Positions 51,992 to 61,057 of a DNA stretch of 64,000 nt are shown one piece after another. The position numbers and the translations under genes are program-made. The notes beneath the pieces were generated by a model. It saw only the letters and a program-made list of their open reading frames with translations. It was not told the origin of the DNA and did no database searches. Origin of the DNA: Christiangramia portivictoriae DSM 23547 (GTDB lineage Bacteria; Bacteroidota; Bacteroidia; Flavobacteriales; Flavobacteriaceae); NCBI RefSeq assembly GCF_000423045.1, contig NZ_KE383971.1, positions 630,092 through 694,091 of the forward strand, read 5' to 3'. Numbering within the stretch: position 1 is the first letter of the stretch; every line of letters starts with the position of its first letter.

Positions 51992-52996
51992 ATGCAAAAG
52001 AAACAATTACTTATTGTAAGTAAGAATGAATTGCTTATCCAGGAACTTGTTCAGGGTTTGAGCACTATGTTTGATGTTTCCATAGAAGGACCTATTCACG
52101 TAGCTTATCACAGGGTTCTCAATTTATTACCAGATACGATTGTTTTCGACAAAACTTCCTATCGTAAACCTTCAGATTTTAAGAATCTGAAAAACTTTAA
52201 AGCAACCCACTTTCTAAAAAGAGCACATCTTGCAATCTATGGTAGTCCTTTGGAAATCAAGATGATGGCAAAACGATACAAAGATCTTGTAGATGAGTAC
52301 CATTCTACTGCTACAGGTTTAGAGCAATTGGTTTCTAGAATTGCTCGCACTGCAGAACAACACAAACTTAATTACTGGCATGAATGCTTTATGGGTCTTT
52401 TTCACCTGATGAATCAACCCGTGCTGCTTCTGGAGAAAGACCAGATAGTTAATATGAATGATGTCGCAATAAATACATTCAGGACCAGTGGGGAAATGCT
52501 GGATATTACAGACATCGTGAGACCGGATGCTAAAAATACAATACGTGAATGTTTACGCAAATTTGCAAAAGGTAAGCATATGCATGCTACAACTGAAACC
52601 ACTCTCAGGATCACGAGTCAGAAACTTAGGAATGCACGTATCACGCTTTCAAAACTAACTCCGAAAATTCAGGATACCTATATAATGCTGATTGATTTTA
52701 TGGGTGATGAATATTGTCTTCGAGATAACGTGGGGTCTACTGCTACAGAAGTTGAAAATTCTCTTTCAATGGTTAAATGTATGGAAGAGGAGAATTTCAC
52801 GAGAAGAGAAAAAGAGATCATTACCCTATTATGTAAAGGCTATAAGACCAAGGAGATTTCAGAAGCACTATTTATAAGCCCTAAAACAATAGAGAAGCAC
52901 AGATCAAGCATTATAAAAAGAACGAATTCAGATACGATCCTTGAAAGCATTATTTACGCTATCAATCACAACCTGGTAGAAATACCAAAATCTTAA
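51992..52996 (+). CDS. LuxR-type regulator with degenerate receiver and PAS-like region
   Basis: A 334-residue regulator. The C-terminal part (about 265-330) is a LuxR/GerE helix-turn-helix: FTRREKEIITLLCKGYKTKE, then ISEALFISPKTIEKHRSSI. Residues 1-115 resemble a receiver fold (LLIVSKNELLIQELVQGL, then NLLPDTIVFDK), but the acidic pair after the first strand is missing (SKN), so phosphorylation by a histidine kinase is doubtful. Residues 130-250 look like a PAS fold (NQPVLLLEKDQIVNMNDVA). It stands directly upstream of the lipoprotein array and is a candidate to control it; that is inference from position. Confidence 0.82.
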   Translation: MQKKQLLIVSKNELLIQELVQGLSTMFDVSIEGPIHVAYHRVLNLLPDTIVFDKTSYRKPSDFKNLKNFKATHFLKRAHLAIYGSPLEIKMMAKRYKDLVDEYHSTATGLEQLVSRIARTAEQHKLNYWHECFMGLFHLMNQPVLLLEKDQIVNMNDVAINTFRTSGEMLDITDIVRPDAKNTIRECLRKFAKGKHMHATTETTLRITSQKLRNARITLSKLTPKIQDTYIMLIDFMGDEYCLRDNVGSTATEVENSLSMVKCMEEENFTRREKEIITLLCKGYKTKEISEALFISPKTIEKHRSSIIKRTNSDTILESIIYAINHNLVEIPKS

Positions 52997-53028: not shown

Positions 53029-53046
53029 ATAGGGGATTTCCCCTAT
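53029..53046. promoter_or_regulatory. Perfect palindrome after the LuxR-type gene
   Basis: ATAGGGGA 53029-53036 and TCCCCTAT 53039-53046 flank TT. No T-run follows, so it may be an operator rather than a terminator. GCCCCCATC (53098-53106) and GCCCCCGATC (53136-53145) lie further on in the same gap, 38 bp apart. Confidence 0.4.
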
Positions 53047-53194: not shown

Positions 53195-53394
53195 ATTTAT
53201 TAACCATTCGAAAATTTATTAACCAAAACTCTGTAATTATGAAGTAGATAGTCACTCCCACCTGGTTCAATCTGAACCGGAAAACTCGTAAGATCAAATC
53301 TTAAGAATCTTTATCCACGAACATATATCGTTCCTTGGACCAGACATTTATTAACCATTCTCAAAATTTTAACCAAAACTTTTTAATCATGAAA
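53195..53394 (+). repeat. Duplicated leader of the lipoprotein array
   Basis: Two near-identical leader copies, 53195-53244 and 53346-53394, both begin ATTTATTAACCATTC, continue AACCAAAACT and end at an ATG. In the first copy the ATG (53239) is followed at once by AAG TAG, an aborted start. The second copy leads into the first lipoprotein gene (ATG 53389). Between them are hairpins: CTGGTTCA 53262-53269 with TGAACCGG 53273-53280, and TAAGAT 53289-53294 with ATCTTA 53298-53303. The simplest reading is a lost or rearranged fourth array gene. Confidence 0.65.
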
Positions 53395-54858
53395 AAATTT
53401 AATTTATACCTCGCTATTTTCTCGATGTGTGCTTTAGTGCTCACCGGATGTAGCAAAGATGAAAACGAAAAAATGAATCCGGGCGAAGATTCAGCTTTTG
53501 TTGAGATCACTTTTGGAGCATCACTTGACGAACTCGTAAACCGGGCCGTACAGGTTAATAAGGACCATTTTAATCAGATACCAACCTGTTCAGATGCTAC
53601 ACCTGCTGTAGCAAGAATCGAATTTTCCTATGGAGGGCAGAATTATTCGACAGATGTAGATATTCTGTTTGATGGAACTGCATACTTTACAGATTACTCT
53701 GAAGCACTAAAGATCCCAGTAGCAAATAATGGTACGACTACCGTTACTTTAACTGGTTTTATGGTGTATGATGGAGATCCTAATTCAGATGGTGATATCA
53801 TATGGATCGCGCCTAAATCATCTGAAGAAGGTCAGTTTGATGGTTATGTAGATAATCCTCTACCATTCGATTTTGATGTTCGAGACGGTACGAAACCATA
53901 CATTGATATTGAAGTTTTGTGTTATGATCGACGTATGGTCAATGAATATGGATATGTATTCTTTGAACTTGAAAATACTGAACTAATCAACTTCTGTATT
54001 TTTGGAAACTTCTGTCCTCCATCCGGTAGACACTACCTGGCTTCTTATAGCGTGAATGTATGGACAGTGGATGAAAACGGTAATAATCTTGTAGATCTTT
54101 ATGATGGAGGTATAGAAAATATGATCGTTGAAGAAGACGGACAGTATTCTGCAGACCCATTATGTATCGTATTACCAGATAGATTAGACGAAACCGATAG
54201 ATATCGTATTGAAATTAGAATTCAAGATGGTCCTGATTATGACGCTAATGAAGGTGAATTAATTAGAACTGCAATTCTAACTGATCTGGAAATTAGAACA
54301 TTTTTTGATGGCGATGATAACCTGGAATACTACCACTTCTTTGAAGGTTGTGGAGAGTCTGATGATCCACAAATCTTTGATGATCCTCGTGACGACACCA
54401 TGGTTTATAAGACTTGTGCTAAAGAATTAAATGATTCTGGTGTTATAGCCTTGGCTTCTGTTGCAAAAACAGGAAATAAATTTGATGTAACCGTACTTGC
54501 TACTAATACTACTGCAGGAATGAGTCACCTACAGCACATACATGGATTTGCTCCTGTACAGGGAGTTCAACAGGATGCGACCTGTCCAACTATGGACGCT
54601 GCTGGTGCTGATGGTATTCTAACCCTCGCAGAAGGTGAGCCATTCTACGGTCCTGTTCAATTGGGTCTATCTGTTTCTGGAGATCAATATCCTGTCGCAG
54701 ATGCAAATGGAAATTATATTTACGAAAGAGTTTTCACACTCTCAGCCGACGAAATGGAAAATCTCACATCTCTTGATAAGAACGTGATCGTAATTCATGG
54801 TCTTGATGGCAATGCTACTTTACCAGTAGCTTGTGGAGAACTTTCTTTGGTTCAATAA
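53389..54858 (+). CDS. Array lipoprotein 1, shared module plus CHRD-like domain
   Basis: A 489-residue lipoprotein (LVLTGC, Cys21); I start it at MKKFN, 18 codons inside the longest frame, because that gives the signal peptide. Residues 35-322 are the module shared with the next two genes: cysteines C67, C178, C203, C209, C259, C321 and motif [13 protein letters not shown] from 180. Residues 335-489 resemble a CHRD domain: HLQHIHG (380-386), a PFYGPV segment near 418 and VIVIHG near 466. I do not recognise the shared module as a named family. It is likely anchored at the outer membrane, perhaps on the surface. The gene ends at its own terminator (54867-54889). Confidence 0.82.
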   Translation: MKKFNLYLAIFSMCALVLTGCSKDENEKMNPGEDSAFVEITFGASLDELVNRAVQVNKDHFNQIPTCSDATPAVARIEFSYGGQNYSTDVDILFDGTAYFTDYSEALKIPVANNGTTTVTLTGFMVYDGDPNSDGDIIWIAPKSSEEGQFDGYVDNPLPFDFDVRDGTKPYIDIEVLCYDRRMVNEYGYVFFELENTELINFCIFGNFCPPSGRHYLASYSVNVWTVDENGNNLVDLYDGGIENMIVEEDGQYSADPLCIVLPDRLDETDRYRIEIRIQDGPDYDANEGELIRTAILTDLEIRTFFDGDDNLEYYHFFEGCGESDDPQIFDDPRDDTMVYKTCAKELNDSGVIALASVAKTGNKFDVTVLATNTTAGMSHLQHIHGFAPVQGVQQDATCPTMDAAGADGILTLAEGEPFYGPVQLGLSVSGDQYPVADANGNYIYERVFTLSADEMENLTSLDKNVIVIHGLDGNATLPVACGELSLVQ

Positions 54859-54866
54859 TATTGAGG

Positions 54867-54889
54867 GGGACACTTGAAGTAAGTGTCCC
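54867..54889 (+). terminator. Terminator after array lipoprotein 1
   Basis: GGGACACTT 54867-54875 pairs with AAGTGTCCC 54881-54889 around GAAGT and is followed by T9. Confidence 0.9.
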
Positions 54890-54920
54890 TTTTTTTTAAT
54901 CAACTTAAAACACAATATAA

Positions 54921-56645
54921 ATGAAACATTTTAAAATTTGCTTGGGATTATTAGCAATGTTAGCGTTGCTGGTGATGTCTTGTAGCCAGGAAGATCAATC
55001 TTCCTCTGAAACCGGCACAGATATTCAGTCTGTAGACTTACAATTTGGAGCTTTATTAAATGACCTGGCAAATCGTGCCATGAGCGTGAACAAGGATCAT
55101 TTTAACCAAATTCCTGATTGTTCAGATGCACTTCCAGCAGTAGCAAGTATTTCCTTCAGCTATGGAGGTAATGATTATGATGTAGATGTAGACATCCTGA
55201 ATGACGGATCAGATTTTTTTACAGCATATTCAGATGATCTTAAAATACCAGTAGCGAACAACAGCTCTGTAACTGTGACTTTGAATGGTTTTCGTGTTTA
55301 TGATGGAGATCCCGATGATGATGGTGAGTTAATATGGGTAGCACCCATTGAAGCTACACCCGGACAGTTTGATGGATATGTGGACAATGCGCTTCCTTTT
55401 ACATTCGAAGTACGAGATGGAACAAAACCCTATATAGATGTTGAAGTTTTATGTTTTGATCGTAGAATGGTCAATGAGTATGGATATCCTTTCTTTGATC
55501 TTGTTCCCGGCAAACTTTATCCATTGTGCTTTTTTGCGAATTACTGTACCGAAAGTGGTCGTCATTATGTAGGGAACTATAGTATAGATCTATATTACGA
55601 TAATGGAGACGAACGTATCAGGCTTTATTCTACCTCTCAAACTCCAACAACAGGAGAAAATAATGGTCAATATTTCGCAGATCCACTTTGTTTAGTAGTA
55701 CCAGAATCTCCCTTTGAAGATGCAACAAGAGACTACCTGTTCTATACCGTTACTCCATTAGATTGGACTGGATCATATGGTGATATAGATAATACACCGA
55801 TGGCAGAAGTAGGACTGGACTGGAACGATGTTGATGCATTATTGAGTGCCGATGGCGAATCTGTAGATTACATACACCTCTTAATTGGATGTGAGCCACC
55901 AATAGGGGATTGTCCTGGTGTACCTACTGAAGGGGATATGGATGGTGATTGTGTGCCAGATGTTGATGATGAATGTCCAGAAGTTCCAGGTACCGTTGAA
56001 AATTTTGGTTGTCCAGATGATGAATGTCCTGGTGAAGACCTGGATAACGATGGATTGTTCGGTGAGTGTGATCAATGTCCCGATGAAGCTGGAACAGCTG
56101 ATAATTTCGGTTGTCCAGTAGATGATTGTACTACAGATACAGATAATGATGGGGTAGTAGATTGTGAAGATGCATGTCCAGATACACAGGGTTCTGCAGA
56201 TAACGATGGCTGTCCGGAAGATGATGGAGGTGATACCTGTGAAACAGCGTTTATGTTTGGAGATACTCAAATTAATGAGATTTCAAATGGCAACCGTTGG
56301 GGATGGGCTGAAAACTTTGATACCACGATTGATGGCAACAGTAAAACATTCAATTTCTGGGCCGGAGCTGGTCAAAATGATACTAGCAAAGGAGAACTTG
56401 TAGGTACTGTGACGATTACTGTTGATGGAGACGAGGTTAATTTTGATATAGATCTTGAATCTGGAGTTAGCCTGGATGATCTTCACGTTTACTTAAGCGA
56501 GGATAACCCTGGAAATATCGCTAAAAGTCCAGGTCAGTATAACCGAAATGACGAAGTAAGTACAGGCGTTCTAGATTTCACTTTAGATCGTAGCAGCAGC
56601 GATTCCAGTTTTTGGATAATTGTTCACGGAGTAGCTTGCTATTAA
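54921..56645 (+). CDS. Array lipoprotein 2, shared module plus TSP3 repeats
   Basis: A 574-residue lipoprotein (LLVMSC, Cys21). The shared module (about 37-325) is collinear with that of gene 1, with cysteines at C67, C178, C203, C209, C257, C324 and [13 protein letters not shown] from 180. Residues 338-432 are thrombospondin-type-3, calcium-binding repeats rich in D-x-D-x-D-G and Cys-Pro. The last 135 residues (from [11 protein letters not shown]) form a beta-rich end domain with WGWAENF and [11 protein letters not shown] segments that I cannot name. TSP3 repeats usually bind calcium and act as rigid spacers. A terminator follows. Confidence 0.82.
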
Positions 56646-56657
56646 TTGGAAATAAAT

Positions 56658-56689
56658 CCATCCTGGAATTTGCATAGACTTCAGGATGG
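56658..56689 (+). terminator. Terminator after array lipoprotein 2
   Basis: CCATCCTG 56658-56665 pairs with CAGGATGG 56682-56689 around a 16-base loop, followed by GATTTTT. Confidence 0.75.
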
Positions 56690-56723
56690 GATTTTTCAGA
56701 AATAATAATAACTAAAAATAGAC

Positions 56724-58349
56724 ATGATGAAGTTTATAAATAAATATATAGCATTAATAGCCCTAGGCGCTATGATGTTTACATCCTGTAGTAAGGATGA
56801 AAGTTCTGAGGTAGTAGACGACGCAGAACTTCAGGCAGTAGAAATTACTTTTGGAGCTTCTCTTAATGATCTGGTAAATCGTGCGGCTCAAAGTCTTAGC
56901 AAAGATCATTTTAATACGATTCCTGATTGTTCTGAAGCTGCACCTGCGGTTGCTAGAATAGAATACAGTTATGGTGGGTCCAGTTACCAAACCGATGTAG
57001 CGATATTAAATGATGGCGATGATTATTTTACCGATTATTCCGAAGATCTTAAAATTTTGGTCCCTAATAATGGACAGGTTACTATAAGCCTGGATGGTTT
57101 TATGGTCTACGACGGCGATCCGGATACTACTGGAAACTTGATTTGGGTGGCCCCGAAGGAATCTGATGGATCATTTGATGGGTATGTGGATCAAGCACTG
57201 CCATTTGACTTTACAGTAGAAGATGGTACTAAACCATACATAGAAGTAGAAGTTCTATGTTTTGATAGAAGAATGGTAAACGAATATGGATATGTATTTT
57301 TTGATATTCTTCCTGAAGTTATCTATCCTCTATGCCTGTTTGTAAACTACTGTGATGAAGATGGAAGACATTATGTAGCAGATTATAGTATTGATCTTTA
57401 TTTCGGAGAGGATGCGTCTGGTATTCAACTTTATGATCATAACGAAAGTTCAGCAATGGCTACTACCGGAGATTATGGATCTGGACAGTATTATGCAGAT
57501 CCACTATGTCTTGTAGTATCAGGTCCACCTGCCAATCTTGGTGACAACGAACCATACTTGTATATGGTATTGTACCCGCAGGATTGGGATGGAACAGGCG
57601 ATATTGATAACTCACCAATCCAGGGAATCACATTATCGTGGAACATGGTTAAGTCCCTTCTGAATGGTGATGGAACGACCAACGAATACTATCACCTGCT
57701 TATTGGTGAATGTGAAGGTGCCTTGACCGGAGATGGTTCTGATGGAGGAGATACCGGAAATAACGACCTTGATGGAGATGGTGTTACTAATGATATAGAC
57801 CAGTGTGCTAATACACCAGCCGGAGCAGTAGTAAATGCAGTTGGATGTCCAGATTCAGACGGAGATGAAGTTTTTGACAACAAAGATTTGTGTCCTGGAA
57901 CTCCAACGGGAACTACAGTAGATGAAGACGGTTGTCCTGTAGATATAGGAGGACCTGATTGTGGAACTGCAACCTGGGGACGCGAAGATCTAATCGAAGG
58001 TTTTGGTCTTGTACTACCTGCTGACTTTACTTTACCTATAAGGATCTTTGCTGAAGCATCCACTTTAGATGATTTAAATGAAGATTTGGAAATCGGTTCA
58101 ATTCAGTTAAGTCCTGTAGAGGGGGGTGTAGCAGTTGCAATCAATTTGGAGCAGGGCTCTCCATACGAGGTTAATAGCTTTACTATTTCAGCAAGTATAA
58201 ACGCAGACGGAAGTAATCCCGTAGTCATTTCGGGAACAGAACTCAATCCTGGTGAAACTGTAAATGAGAATTTAATTTTGACTGGTTATACTGGAACTAA
58301 TCTTTACCTGAAAGTTGAATTCGATATATGTGAAGTTTCTGTGAATTAA
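56724..58349 (+). CDS. Array lipoprotein 3, shared module plus TSP3 repeats
   Basis: A 541-residue lipoprotein (MMFTSC, Cys22). Shared module about 38-331 with cysteines C69, C179, C204, C210, C262, C330 and [13 protein letters not shown] from 181. Residues 347-408 hold two or three TSP3-type repeats (DLDGDGVTNDIDQC, DSDGDEVFDNKDLC). The end domain, from CGTATWGREDL, is beta-rich and unlike those of genes 1 and 2. ATG 56724 gives MMKF; ATG 56727 is equally possible. The array seems to have kept one module and exchanged the C-terminal domains. Confidence 0.82.
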   Translation: MMKFINKYIALIALGAMMFTSCSKDESSEVVDDAELQAVEITFGASLNDLVNRAAQSLSKDHFNTIPDCSEAAPAVARIEYSYGGSSYQTDVAILNDGDDYFTDYSEDLKILVPNNGQVTISLDGFMVYDGDPDTTGNLIWVAPKESDGSFDGYVDQALPFDFTVEDGTKPYIEVEVLCFDRRMVNEYGYVFFDILPEVIYPLCLFVNYCDEDGRHYVADYSIDLYFGEDASGIQLYDHNESSAMATTGDYGSGQYYADPLCLVVSGPPANLGDNEPYLYMVLYPQDWDGTGDIDNSPIQGITLSWNMVKSLLNGDGTTNEYYHLLIGECEGALTGDGSDGGDTGNNDLDGDGVTNDIDQCANTPAGAVVNAVGCPDSDGDEVFDNKDLCPGTPTGTTVDEDGCPVDIGGPDCGTATWGREDLIEGFGLVLPADFTLPIRIFAEASTLDDLNEDLEIGSIQLSPVEGGVAVAINLEQGSPYEVNSFTISASINADGSNPVVISGTELNPGETVNENLILTGYTGTNLYLKVEFDICEVSVN

Positions 58350-58410
58350 TTCTTTAAAAAATCCGCATGATTAATTAACCGGGGGGTGACTAATTTGCGG
58401 GTTTTTTACC

Positions 58411-58456
58411 CACTCCTGTGGAGTGTGTGTAAGGCTGTCTGGAGCAATCCAGACAG
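58411..58456 (+). terminator. Terminator pair after array lipoprotein 3
   Basis: CACTCC 58411-58416 pairs with GGAGTG 58420-58425, then CTGTCTGG 58435-58442 with CCAGACAG 58449-58456, followed by a T-run. The rest of the gap to 58760 is AT-rich, with an inverted repeat TGGTTT 58536-58541 and AAACCA 58546-58551 and the short open frame described next. Confidence 0.85.
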
Positions 58457-58695
58457 TTTTTTTTGTTTTATAAGAAAAAATGTTTTTATGTTACTACTTG
58501 ATTATCAATATCATGGATGACAGAAAACACTTACTTGGTTTCTGAAAACCATTAGTTTTATTGGGCTTTAAGTAGATTAATGTTCTGATTTTTAGGTCAA
58601 CTAGCTTCCTGAAAAGAACAATAGCCATAGAGCTTAGAGCACAGACTGTAAGAATAATATTGTTAAAAAATTAACTAAAATATACGTTAATTTTT

Positions 58696-58760: not shown

Positions 58761-59816
58761 ATGACAAAATTAAAGAGTGTCTTCCTACTATCAGCTTTTG
58801 CGATGTTTAGCTGTAGTGAGGATCCTGCTTCAGAAATTGTAACTGCTGAAAATGAAACCCAAATCACTTCAACAGAACCTAAGGATGACATTACCGAGAT
58901 CGCATTCCCAGATTCTAAAGGGACTGCTACAGACGTTTATTACACTGGTATTAAAATGGCTGTAGAAAATGTGAATGGTAATTATATTTTCGAAGGTGAT
59001 ATTATTATTCCTAAAGAAAAGACGTCCAAAAGTCCTGTAAATTTAGTTTTAGAGAAAGGTGATGAGGTATCTCAAACAAAAAGCGTTGGAAGAACTAAAG
59101 CTTACTGGGAAGATAATACTGTTTACTACGAAATAGATTCAAGGTTATCCAATCAGGATCGCGTTTTCGATGCGATTAGCCATTGGGAAGCAAACACCAA
59201 TCTGGAATTTGTGAAAAGATCTGGACAATCAGATTACATTTATTTCACTCCGGGCTCTGGATGTTCTTCTTATGTTGGAAAAGTTGGAGGAAAGCAGAAT
59301 ATTACTTTGGCAGATGCTTGTTCTACCGGTAATACTATCCATGAAATTGGTCACGCAATTGGACTATGGCACGAACAAAGCCGTGTGGATAGAGACAGCC
59401 ATATAACTATCAACTTTGAGAATATTCAGACTGGAAGGGAATATAATTTTCAGACTTACCAGGAAAATAACTTTGATGGAGAGGAGTTTACTACCAATCT
59501 CGACTTTGGCTCCATCATGATGTATAGCCCCTACGCATTTTCCAAAAACGGTCAGCCAACGATTACAAGGAAAGATGGCAGTATTTATAATGTTCAAAGA
59601 TCGCAATTATCAAATGGGGACGTAACAGGAATTAACGCAATGTACCCTTCATCTAATGGTGGCGAGGAGAATCCAAACCCGACTTATATCAATGGAGAGT
59701 ATTACACAATTGCCGGACTTACCGTCCTGAGATATTATGATCAATGGTACTATAATATGGGCTGGTACGGTTGGAAACGAGTTGAGCTTATAGATGGGGT
59801 ATGGTACTTCGCTTAA
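58761..59816 (+). CDS. Astacin-family (M12A) lipoprotein metallopeptidase 1
   Basis: A 351-residue lipoprotein (AMFSCSE, Cys18). Residues 45-110 are a propeptide with FEGD (77-80), the FxGD 'aspartate switch' that blocks zinc in proastacins. The catalytic domain (about 111-297) has the full zinc motif HEIGHAIGLWHEQSRVDRD (194-212) and Met-turn SIMMYS (251-256). C168 and C187 may form a disulfide. A linker leads to an end module of about 43 residues (YINGEYYTIAGLTVLRYYD...VWYF). Likely outer-membrane anchored, made as a zymogen and activated by cleavage. Its neighbour is a close paralogue. Confidence 0.93.
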   Translation: MTKLKSVFLLSAFAMFSCSEDPASEIVTAENETQITSTEPKDDITEIAFPDSKGTATDVYYTGIKMAVENVNGNYIFEGDIIIPKEKTSKSPVNLVLEKGDEVSQTKSVGRTKAYWEDNTVYYEIDSRLSNQDRVFDAISHWEANTNLEFVKRSGQSDYIYFTPGSGCSSYVGKVGGKQNITLADACSTGNTIHEIGHAIGLWHEQSRVDRDSHITINFENIQTGREYNFQTYQENNFDGEEFTTNLDFGSIMMYSPYAFSKNGQPTITRKDGSIYNVQRSQLSNGDVTGINAMYPSSNGGEENPNPTYINGEYYTIAGLTVLRYYDQWYYNMGWYGWKRVELIDGVWYFA

Positions 59817-59843
59817 TTTGTACTACTTCTAAAAATTAACTTG

Positions 59844-59881
59844 AATCATCGAAAGTTCAACAATTTGAACTTTCGATGATT
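59844..59881 (+). terminator. Terminator between the two astacin genes
   Basis: A 17-bp perfect stem, 59844-59860 with 59865-59881, around CAAT, followed by TT and then C. The second gene starts 79 bp later. Confidence 0.85.
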
Positions 59882-59959
59882 TTCTATGAAATAACTTTTC
59901 AGATTTCTGAATGAAACCAAATCGAATTCAGACTCATACACTTACTAATAATCCTACTT

Positions 59960-61057
59960 ATGAAAAACCTTAAATTTATTTTAGCTGTTCCGTTATTGGC
60001 TCTAACAAGTTGTAGCGAAGAGAACTTTGATGATTCTAAAACTTTGCCAAGCGAAGCGGGTTCTTTCCTGAATGATGAATTTACAGAAATCGCATTCCCT
60101 AGCGAATCTGGAAATGTTTCCGATATTTATTTTGCTGGCAGAAAACTTCCAGTAGAGGAATTAAATGGAAAGTATGTATACCAGGGAGATATTTTTCTTT
60201 CAGAAGAGAATATTTCTAAAATACCGCTAGACCTGGTTTTAGATGCTGATGAAGATGTACTTATCACTGATAAAAGTGTTGGCCGTACAAAATTCTTCTG
60301 GCCTGAGAATGTAGTATATTACAGTATAGATCCTGCATTGCCTAACCAGCAGAGAGTTGTAGATGCAATCGCGCATTGGGAAAGCAACACTGCTGTGCAA
60401 TTCGTTCAACGATCTTCAGAATCCAACTACGTATATTTCACTCCAGGAGGAGGGTGTTCTTCTTACGTGGGTATGGTAGGCGGTAGACAACCCATTACTC
60501 TTGCTGATGGCTGTTCAACTGGAAATACGATACATGAGATTGGTCATGCCGTTGGATTATGGCATGAACAGAGCAGAGCAGATAGAGATCAAACTATTAC
60601 AGTAAATTTTAATAATATCCTTTCAGGTAGAGAGCATAACTTTTACACGTATATAGAATCCGGTTATGATGGTGCAGATTATACTGCCGGACTGGATCTT
60701 GGATCAATTATGATGTATAGTCCGTACTCATTTTCTGCCAATGGACAGCCTACAATCACCAGAAAAGATGGCTCTCTTTATAATGTCCAGCGCTCTGCTC
60801 TTTCTAACGGAGATATCGAAGGAATCGCGGTCATGTATCCTGGCGGAAACGAACCTGAACCAACCGAACCAGAACCTACAGAGCCAGAACCTACAGAGCC
60901 GGAACCAACGAATCCTGAGCCGGAGTATATCAATGGCGAGTGGTATGTTATCGAAGGTGTGATGGTACTTCGACAAGACAATAAATGGTATGTTGAAAAA
61001 GGTAAAAATTTGAGGGAAGTGGAACTTGTAAACGGTCGATGGAGATTTGTTAAGTAA
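59960..61057 (+). CDS. Astacin-family (M12A) lipoprotein metallopeptidase 2
   Basis: A 365-residue lipoprotein (LALTSCSE, Cys18), paralogue of the preceding gene. Propeptide with YQGD (74-77) at the FxGD position. Zinc motif HEIGHAVGLWHEQSRADRD (192-210); Met-turn SIMMYS (249-254). Between catalytic domain and end module is a Pro-Glu-Thr linker, (EPEPT) repeated four times (298-321), replacing the short linker of the first enzyme. The end module (323-365: YINGEWYVIEGVMVLRQ...WRF) matches the first enzyme's. The linker repeat DNA could change length by slippage. Confidence 0.93.
   Translation: MKNLKFILAVPLLALTSCSEENFDDSKTLPSEAGSFLNDEFTEIAFPSESGNVSDIYFAGRKLPVEELNGKYVYQGDIFLSEENISKIPLDLVLDADEDVLITDKSVGRTKFFWPENVVYYSIDPALPNQQRVVDAIAHWESNTAVQFVQRSSESNYVYFTPGGGCSSYVGMVGGRQPITLADGCSTGNTIHEIGHAVGLWHEQSRADRDQTITVNFNNILSGREHNFYTYIESGYDGADYTAGLDLGSIMMYSPYSFSANGQPTITRKDGSLYNVQRSALSNGDIEGIAVMYPGGNEPEPTEPEPTEPEPTEPEPTNPEPEYINGEWYVIEGVMVLRQDNKWYVEKGKNLREVELVNGRWRFVK

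What the first reader, a model, noticed from the sequence alone, without database searches (positions are those of the whole stretch)
53389..58349. Three tandem lipoproteins sharing an unnamed six-cysteine module
Modules of about 290 residues are collinear, with six conserved cysteines (for example C67, C178, C203, C209, C259, C321 in gene 1) and [13 protein letters not shown] almost invariant. I recognise no family for it. Three intact copies in a row suggest selection for variants of a surface function such as binding, adhesion or matrix.
Basis: partly seen in the sequence, partly recalled or inferred. Interest (0 to 1): 0.72.

Follow-up and report, generated by a model that had tools for sequence, protein, structure and literature searches.

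The report
Matched surface-lipoprotein array with interchangeable heads
A marine bacterium carries a conserved set of neighbouring, probably cell-surface proteins that share one six-cysteine module but end in different heads, and comparison with relatives shows that the modules change together as a matched set while most heads vary largely on their own.

Summary
Three intact lipoprotein genes (53389-54858, 54921-56645, 56724-58349) share a ~300-residue module right after the lipid cysteine. Its six cysteines are kept in 108-113 of 114 distinct homologues; it is under purifying selection (dN/dS 0.04-0.06, one genome pair) and reaches no Pfam or NCBIfam cut-off. The predicted fold is mostly beta; PDB matches include a type V fimbrial anchor (Mfa2) and pilins, at low TM.

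The array belongs to a locus kept in Christiangramia, Gillisia, Salegentibacter and Salinimicrobium: LuxR-type regulator, mostly 2-4 module lipoproteins, astacin genes. Heads: a Cu/Zn-SOD-like barrel, a 'WGW' domain behind TSP3-like repeats, a third mixed type; some members are module only.

New: modules of one locus match each other beyond species relationship (partial Mantel r 0.83-0.95 given UvrA), while heads do not covary with each other (-0.11 to 0.13). A relative with 97-98% identical UvrA and LuxR has modules only 40-47% identical. I infer, without a binding test, that array members co-assemble through the module. The locus also carries a strictly conserved single-copy hairpin, a palindrome and a leader mini-ORF.

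The parts
51992..52996 (+). LuxR-type (GerE) regulator gene at the head of the locus
   Evidence: Pfam GerE E 1.1e-13; directly upstream of the first module gene in the 26 non-redundant loci, which were picked for having it
53030..53045 (.). palindrome TAGGGGATTTCCCCTA, candidate operator
   Evidence: only site in the own genome at up to 3 mismatches of a 20-base form; GGGG-N4-CCCC in 15 of 19 aligned genus leaders, 0 of 7 other leaders; in a window-only scan at 3 mismatches the count is at chance level; function inferred
53197..53262 (+). first copy of the TTATTAACCATTC leader box, mini-ORF ATG AAG TAG (53239-53247), then AGTCACTCCCACC
   Evidence: a 2-3 codon mini-ORF in 17 of 19 genus leaders
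53348..53388 (+). second copy of the leader box, directly before gene 1
53389..54858 (+). gene 1, lipoprotein (489 aa): module plus SOD-like head
   Evidence: lipobox-like Cys and C-S-K-D-E
53452..54366 (+). six-cysteine module of gene 1
54394..54855 (+). head of gene 1, Cu/Zn-SOD-like barrel
   Evidence: Foldseek top hits are Cu/Zn SODs, 7b4p TMt 0.61, E 9.9e-5; QHxH, a late His and a Cys pair invariant in 18 heads
54921..56645 (+). gene 2, lipoprotein (574 aa): module, TSP3-like repeats, WGW head
54984..55913 (+). six-cysteine module of gene 2
56238..56642 (+). WGW head of gene 2 (unnamed domain)
   Evidence: class found in 28 of 114 homologues; no Pfam domain over this part of the window protein at E 0.05
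56724..58349 (+). gene 3, lipoprotein (541 aa): module, TSP3-like repeats, third-position head
56790..57728 (+). six-cysteine module of gene 3
58355..58407 (+). conserved hairpin with cap ACCGGGGGGTGACTAAT after the last module gene
58435..58464 (+). hairpin plus T-run, terminator-like
   Evidence: read directly in the sequence; not scored by a tool
58761..59816 (+). astacin metalloprotease gene
   Evidence: Pfam Astacin E 7.8e-49; lipoprotein-like start read by eye
59960..61057 (+). second astacin gene
   Evidence: Pfam Astacin E 3.3e-45; lipoprotein-like start read by eye

Best explanation
The three proteins are members of one surface assembly. Each is lipid-anchored and, from its signal behind the lipid cysteine, probably flipped to the outer face of the outer membrane. 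The shared module is a probably disulphide-stabilised beta scaffold, built somewhat like the anchors of Bacteroidota type V fimbriae, by which the lipoproteins of one array associate with each other; in genes 2 and 3 TSP3-like linkers hold out the head, in gene 1 the SOD-like head follows directly. The heads do the binding or chemistry. A LuxR-type regulator next door probably controls the operon, and the downstream astacins are probable co-acting surface proteases. Shown here: gene anatomy, conservation, synteny, module matching, lack of covariation between heads. Inferred: surface exposure, disulphides, co-assembly, the roles of heads, regulator and astacins.
For: Module directly behind the lipid Cys, six Cys conserved. 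In 26 non-redundant loci picked for the LuxR gene, the array follows it and an astacin follows the array in 24, the other two (L035, L039) being cut by contig ends; of 28 fetched loci without the LuxR gene none has an astacin of that cluster. Arrays carry distinct heads, and six carry a module-only member (L045, L062, L064, L068, L073, L092), hard to explain if the module were only a stalk. Modules of one locus match: partial Mantel r given UvrA 0.95 (WGW gene vs last gene, n=20), 0.83 and 0.83 (SOD gene vs each, n=16), p 0.0002 each, the smallest that 5000 permutations allow; WGW vs last also within the large lineage (0.67, n=12) and outside it (0.93, n=8). Head-head correlations are 0.13, -0.07, -0.11. 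Of 66 members tested, 62 have a module nearer to a paralogue of their own array than to any same-head module of another lineage (lineages taken from the module tree, so after the fact). Purifying selection. Fold hits include anchors (5nfi, 3pay) and pilins.
Against: No complex was predicted or measured. Fold matches are weak over the module (TMq 0.25 or less in the 50 listed). Matching could come from gene conversion without compatibility: in L070 two modules are 98-100% identical in DNA over about 900 bases. Heads are not all free of the modules: the SOD head covaries with its own module (0.69) and with the WGW gene's module (0.55), and in the large lineage the WGW head covaries with its module (0.43, p 0.007). 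In that lineage the SOD and WGW modules match only weakly (0.31, n=9, p 0.03). Module types do not covary with the regulator (-0.02) or astacin 1 (0.15-0.18, not significant).
Confidence: 0.48

Rival explanations
1. The module is a passive anchor or stalk. Tandem copies are homogenised by neutral gene conversion and arrays are now and then replaced by transfer; each lipoprotein works alone through its head.
For: A conversion-like tract in L070 starts near the start codon and ends near the module end; array difference between close relatives (window vs L073); module genes outside the locus carry unrelated heads, for example Lcl_C in L078, and PPC, GSDH-like and P-domain occur among 83 C-termini (members not named there).
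Against: Module-only members; two or more module genes in 23 of 24 genomes of the genus, the miss being 73% complete. Except in L070, modules of one array are only 46-71% identical, so conversion does not sweep them to identity.
Confidence: 0.3
2. The modules are targets of phages, grazers or other recognition, and arrays are swapped under balancing selection, like serotypes.
For: Deeply divergent module types share one syntenic place within one genus; window and L073 have 97% identical UvrA but 40-47% identical modules.
Against: dN/dS 0.04-0.06 in one genome pair. No phage evidence: PHROGs gave one weak tail-fibre hit to the gene 2 module (E 0.015) and one to an unknown family (E 0.37).
Confidence: 0.12
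3. A true type V fimbria: processed subunits polymerise by strand donation, with module-only proteins as shaft.
For: Mfa2 (5nfi), BovFim2B (3pay) and several Gram-positive pilins are among the top fold hits; weak NCBIfam Mfa1-family hit at the N-terminus of gene 1 (E 2.2e-4, 20.6 bits against a cut-off of 130).
Against: A signal peptide alone may give that hit; a cysteine after strand 1 recalls the uncleaved anchor rather than a processed shaft (PMC5789003); heads occupy the C-terminus in 105 of 114 members.
Confidence: 0.07

Closest known systems
Type V fimbrial anchor proteins (Mfa2, BovFim2B)
   Same: Lipid-anchored Bacteroidota surface proteins of beta domains; in Mfa2 the first strand is held by a disulphide and not cleaved (PMC5789003, passages and section 11); among the best fold hits.
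   Different: Low TM-score (TMq 0.25 for 5nfi, 0.21 for 3pay); six conserved Cys; heads behind the module; tandem arrays; LuxR and astacin neighbours.
DUF4458 (PF14660) and BT_0210 (4ecn)
   Same: Weak sub-cut-off hits in 4 of 46 alignment members and 3 of 8 further relatives, there in the first half of the protein; 4ecn is the top fold hit.
   Different: Never over the curated cut-off; no LRR hit in the window proteins. That 4ecn carries DUF4458 is recalled, not tested.
Cu/Zn superoxide dismutase / CHRD
   Same: Gene 1 head has the SOD-like fold, the H-x-H pair and an invariant Cys pair.
   Different: Only three His invariant and one nearly so in 18 heads; no full Zn site seen.
TSP3 surface proteins
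   Same: TSP3-like repeats between module and head in genes 2 and 3; in the window below Pfam's cut-off.
   Different: Repeats are only the linker here. A Zobellia operon with TSP3 proteins rises on alginate or laminarin (PMC5613140, one passage); no kinship to our genes was tested.

Membership tests
Type V fimbrial proteins (FimA/Mfa1/Mfa2) | two-domain fimbrillin fold over the whole module | tested here: inconclusive
   5nfi E 6.6e-4, prob 0.94, TMq 0.25, rmsd 11.7
Type V fimbrial proteins (FimA/Mfa1/Mfa2) | sequence-family match over cut-off | tested here: not met
   Mfa1-family model 20.6 bits against 130
Type V fimbrial proteins (FimA/Mfa1/Mfa2) | proteolytic maturation and polymerisation | not testable with these tools
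   needs biochemistry
Surface-exported Bacteroidota lipoproteins | lipobox and C-X-K-(D/E)2 export signal | tested here: met
   lipobox-like Cys in 113 of 114 by my simple rule; signal in 80 of these 113, relaxed form in 97; genes 1 and 3 exact, gene 2 C-S-Q-E-D, relaxed form only. Export itself not tested
DUF4458 | Pfam match over the curated cut-off | tested here: not met
   none listed over it; best bits shown 15.4 against 22.4 (one search gives E-values only); the genome search with this family rang nowhere, controls included, so it decides nothing
Cu/Zn superoxide dismutase (gene 1 head) | SOD beta-barrel fold | tested here: met
   7b4p TMt 0.61, prob 1.00, on a model
Cu/Zn superoxide dismutase (gene 1 head) | full Cu and Zn ligand set (six His, one Asp; recalled) | tested here: not met
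   only H59, H61, H146 invariant and H56 nearly so in 18 heads
Astacin (neighbour genes) | Pfam Astacin over cut-off | tested here: met
   166.3 and 154.5 bits against 22.5

The most novel reading that the evidence does not exclude
This is an allotypic surface-assembly locus: lipoproteins of one array recognise each other through lineage-specific module types, so that modules must stay matched within a cell while heads can be exchanged; arrays of incompatible type replace one another as cassettes between close relatives, giving a self/non-self surface code served by its own regulator and RNA elements.
Probability: 0.22. Interest if true: 0.85.

Novelty: new variant of a known kind. Interest (0 to 1): 0.6.

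Why it matters
If matching reflects compatibility, it is a natural system for studying how surface complexes stay self-consistent under horizontal exchange.

Tried and rejected
Known family for the module: Pfam, NCBIfam, PHROGs and the PDB by sequence gave nothing convincing. The phmmer hit of gene 3 (best E 0.0016) and the TraB, MtsC and PA1041 hits fall in or next to the TSP3-like stretch. Anti-phage defence: no PADLOC hit for lipoproteins or astacins at E 0.01; of three weak hits of the regulator, two fall in its HTH region. DUF4458 in 148 phylum genomes: no match anywhere, controls included, so uninformative. Flavobacterial promoter motif TTG-N17-23-TAnnTTTG (recalled): 4 found, 4.0 expected. 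Rfam: two hits, both under the gathering score, taken as chance; one, AniS, overlaps the 3' hairpin at 27.9 bits against 50. Regulator or astacin type matched to module type: not seen. Alignment A8 had mis-set coordinates and was replaced by A9. Literature (open-licence PMC only): searches for DUF4458 (57), astacin+lipoprotein+Bacteroidetes+thrombospondin (58), tandem+lipoprotein+gene conversion+Flavobacteria (74), Gramella+thrombospondin+lipoprotein (98), Gramella+astacin (99) and Gramella+proteome+TonB+lipoprotein+surface (43) listed no paper whose title or abstract start describes this locus; full texts were not read.
Full report
What is there. The window lies in a 3.27 Mb genome in 8 contigs; the nearest named record found is an uncultured Christiangramia MAG (gene 1 module 99% identical). 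Three intact genes follow one another at 53389-54858, 54921-56645 and 56724-58349. Each begins with a lipoprotein signal; the module starts right behind the lipid cysteine and is collinear in all three. The genome holds no fourth copy at E 1.

Conservation. In 59 genomes, the own included, the module is found in 27: 23 of 24 of the genus (the miss is 73% complete) and 4 of 35 others. In an even draw of 249 family genomes, the own included, it is found in 6, two of them by weak partial matches only. Named hits are Christiangramia/Gramella, Gillisia, Salegentibacter and Salinimicrobium (19 loci). Among 114 distinct homologues from the fetched loci the six cysteines are kept in 113, 112, 113, 112, 113 and 108. 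Two genomes of another family of the order have tandem runs of three relatives with most of the cysteine pattern, and FGFNWF in place of the NEYGY stretch in the three of L071. Partial matches (L082, L097, L098) share only the first part of the module.

Fold. No Pfam model reached its cut-off. A model of gene 1 (mean pLDDT 77.8, pTM 0.39) matched Cu/Zn SODs through its head. A model of the gene 2 module alone (pLDDT 81.0, pTM 0.59) is beta strands apart from two short helices. Its best PDB matches are 4ecn (E 1.1e-6), a Bacillus TIE protein, a streptococcal ancillary pilin, a basal pilin, Mfa2 and 3pay, and TMq is 0.25 or less in the 50 rows shown. PMC5789003 (passages and section 11) lists 3pay as a putative fimbrial anchor and describes Mfa2 as uncleaved, its first strand held by a disulphide. 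I read this as 'built like a fimbrial anchor', not as membership. Most of the stretch [10 protein letters not shown] lies in a low-confidence part of both models.

Surface signal. PMC5080379 (passages) gives C-X-K-(D/E)2-X as the export signal of Capnocytophaga and S-led acidic forms for two other Bacteroidota. Of 113 homologues with a lipobox-like Cys, 80 fit C-X-K-(D/E)2, 97 a relaxed form, and 104 have at least two acidic residues at +2 to +6. Export in this genus is inferred, not tested.

Heads. By profiles made here, the 114 C-termini are 28 WGW, 23 SOD-like, 17 third-type, 9 module only (under 40 residues) and 37 other; gene 3 of the window falls under 'other' by this cut although it sits in the third position. 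Pfam finds TSP3 in 31 of 83 C-termini scanned (E 0.05; 83 of the 105 long ones). In 18 SOD-like heads only three His are invariant, so full SOD chemistry is doubtful.

The locus. I took as syntenic those fetched loci that carry the LuxR-type gene: 32 records, 26 non-redundant, so its presence is by selection. In all of them the reversed uvrA-like gene, the LuxR-type gene and module genes follow in this order, and an astacin follows in 24 of 26; the other two end at contig ends. The arrays have 2-4 module genes before the astacin, except L035 (one, contig end); L073 has two more behind it. Of 28 fetched loci without the LuxR gene, none has an astacin of this cluster, and they hold one to three module genes. 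The name uvrA is recalled from its sequence; no family search was run on it. I chose the loci by hand: the main arrays of G003, G005, G011 and G012, those of G016 at C23:434-440 kb, and those of G077 and G287 were not fetched with full flanks. Gaps: median 394 bases before SOD-type genes, 78-101 before the other types; 377-463 before the first astacin in 14 of 15 loci, 722 in one.

Modules match, heads do not. The module tree groups modules by locus lineage more than by head. I measured protein identities for 22 of the 26 loci (L034, L035, L048, L049 left out as near copies or cut) and tested them by partial Mantel with UvrA as species control, leaving out L053 and, in the last run, L039. Module of the WGW gene against module of the last gene: 0.95 (n=20); SOD against WGW 0.83 and SOD against last 0.83 (n=16 each); all p 0.0002. 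Terminal head domains: WGW-SOD 0.13 (n=14, p 0.12), WGW-third -0.07 (n=15), SOD-third -0.11 (n=12). Module with own head: WGW 0.13 (p 0.11), third -0.14, but SOD 0.69. Untrimmed heads gave 0.27 (p 0.013) for WGW and 0.70 for SOD, and 0.43 (p 0.007) for WGW within the large lineage; so heads do not covary with each other, but are not wholly free of the modules. Within that lineage WGW-last modules give 0.67 (n=12) and SOD-WGW only 0.31 (n=9, p 0.03); outside it 0.93 and 0.94 (n=8). Two loci (L058, L068) dropped out of the WGW head rows because my pattern missed their start. Of 66 members testable, 62 are nearer to an array partner than to any same-head module of another lineage; the 4 exceptions are all SOD-type. 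The third position mixes head classes, so its low head correlation is partly noise.

Replacement. The window and L073 share 97% UvrA, 98% LuxR and 94% leader identity, yet their modules are 40-47% identical, while L073 modules are 68-85% identical to those of L062. L070 shows 98-100% DNA identity between two modules over about 900 bases and about 50% beyond. I read these as array replacement and within-array conversion. Between the window and L053 modules are under strong purifying selection (dN/dS 0.04-0.06; heads 0.05, 0.05 and 0.19, one pair, simple counting, synonymous changes high in several genes).

RNA-like and DNA elements. After the last module gene lies a hairpin whose cap holds CCGGGGGGTGACTAAT. 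At up to one mismatch this 16-mer occurs once in 22 of 24 genomes of the genus (the two misses are 73% and 67% complete) and in none of 35 others. Of 24 array loci examined 21 have the motif, three of them Salegentibacter with a different but still pairing stem; L042, L045 and L068 lack it as searched, L042 having a near form. Of 17 predicted pairs, 7 have sequences with both sides changed and the pair kept (17 sequences). A covariance model finds it in 2 of 249 family genomes, both array bearers; G030 and G287, which also hold runs of module genes, have no match. In 19 aligned leaders of genus loci, 17 have a mini-ORF of 2-3 codons behind the first leader box (not L059, L060), 15 the palindrome core GGGG-N4-CCCC (not L054, L058, L059, L064) and 13 AGTCACTCCC exactly; the 7 other leaders lack the palindrome core. 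AGTCACTCCC could pair with the hairpin cap; this was seen by eye and not tested.

Verdict. Co-assembly is inferred from module matching and module-only members; neutral homogenisation is the main rival.

Noticed in passing
58355-58407: Hairpin with cap ACCGGGGGGTGACTAAT, single copy, next to the array in the genus and in three Salegentibacter loci; no Rfam family over its gathering score.
   Followed up: partly
53197-53262: Leader with duplicated 5' box, mini-ORF ATG-AAG-TAG and AGTCACTCCCACC, which could pair with the 3' hairpin cap.
   Followed up: partly
53030-53045: Palindrome TAGGGGATTTCCCCTA, single site in the own genome; core in 15 of 19 genus leaders; candidate operator.
   Followed up: partly
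51992-52996: The regulator is itself allelic: 98% identical to that of L073 and L053 but 43-56% to the other 19 loci compared, whose UvrA is 79-91% identical.
   Followed up: partly
L071 9021-13205; L072 7033-11635: Tandem runs of three related proteins in another family of the order, without the LuxR or astacin genes.
   Followed up: partly
56238-56642: WGW head: an unnamed domain also fused to the distant modules in L087 and L088.
   Followed up: no
58761-61057: Both astacins score on NCBIfam LegP (237 and 219 bits) but below its cut-off of 300; the astacin tree splits into two old clades.
   Followed up: no
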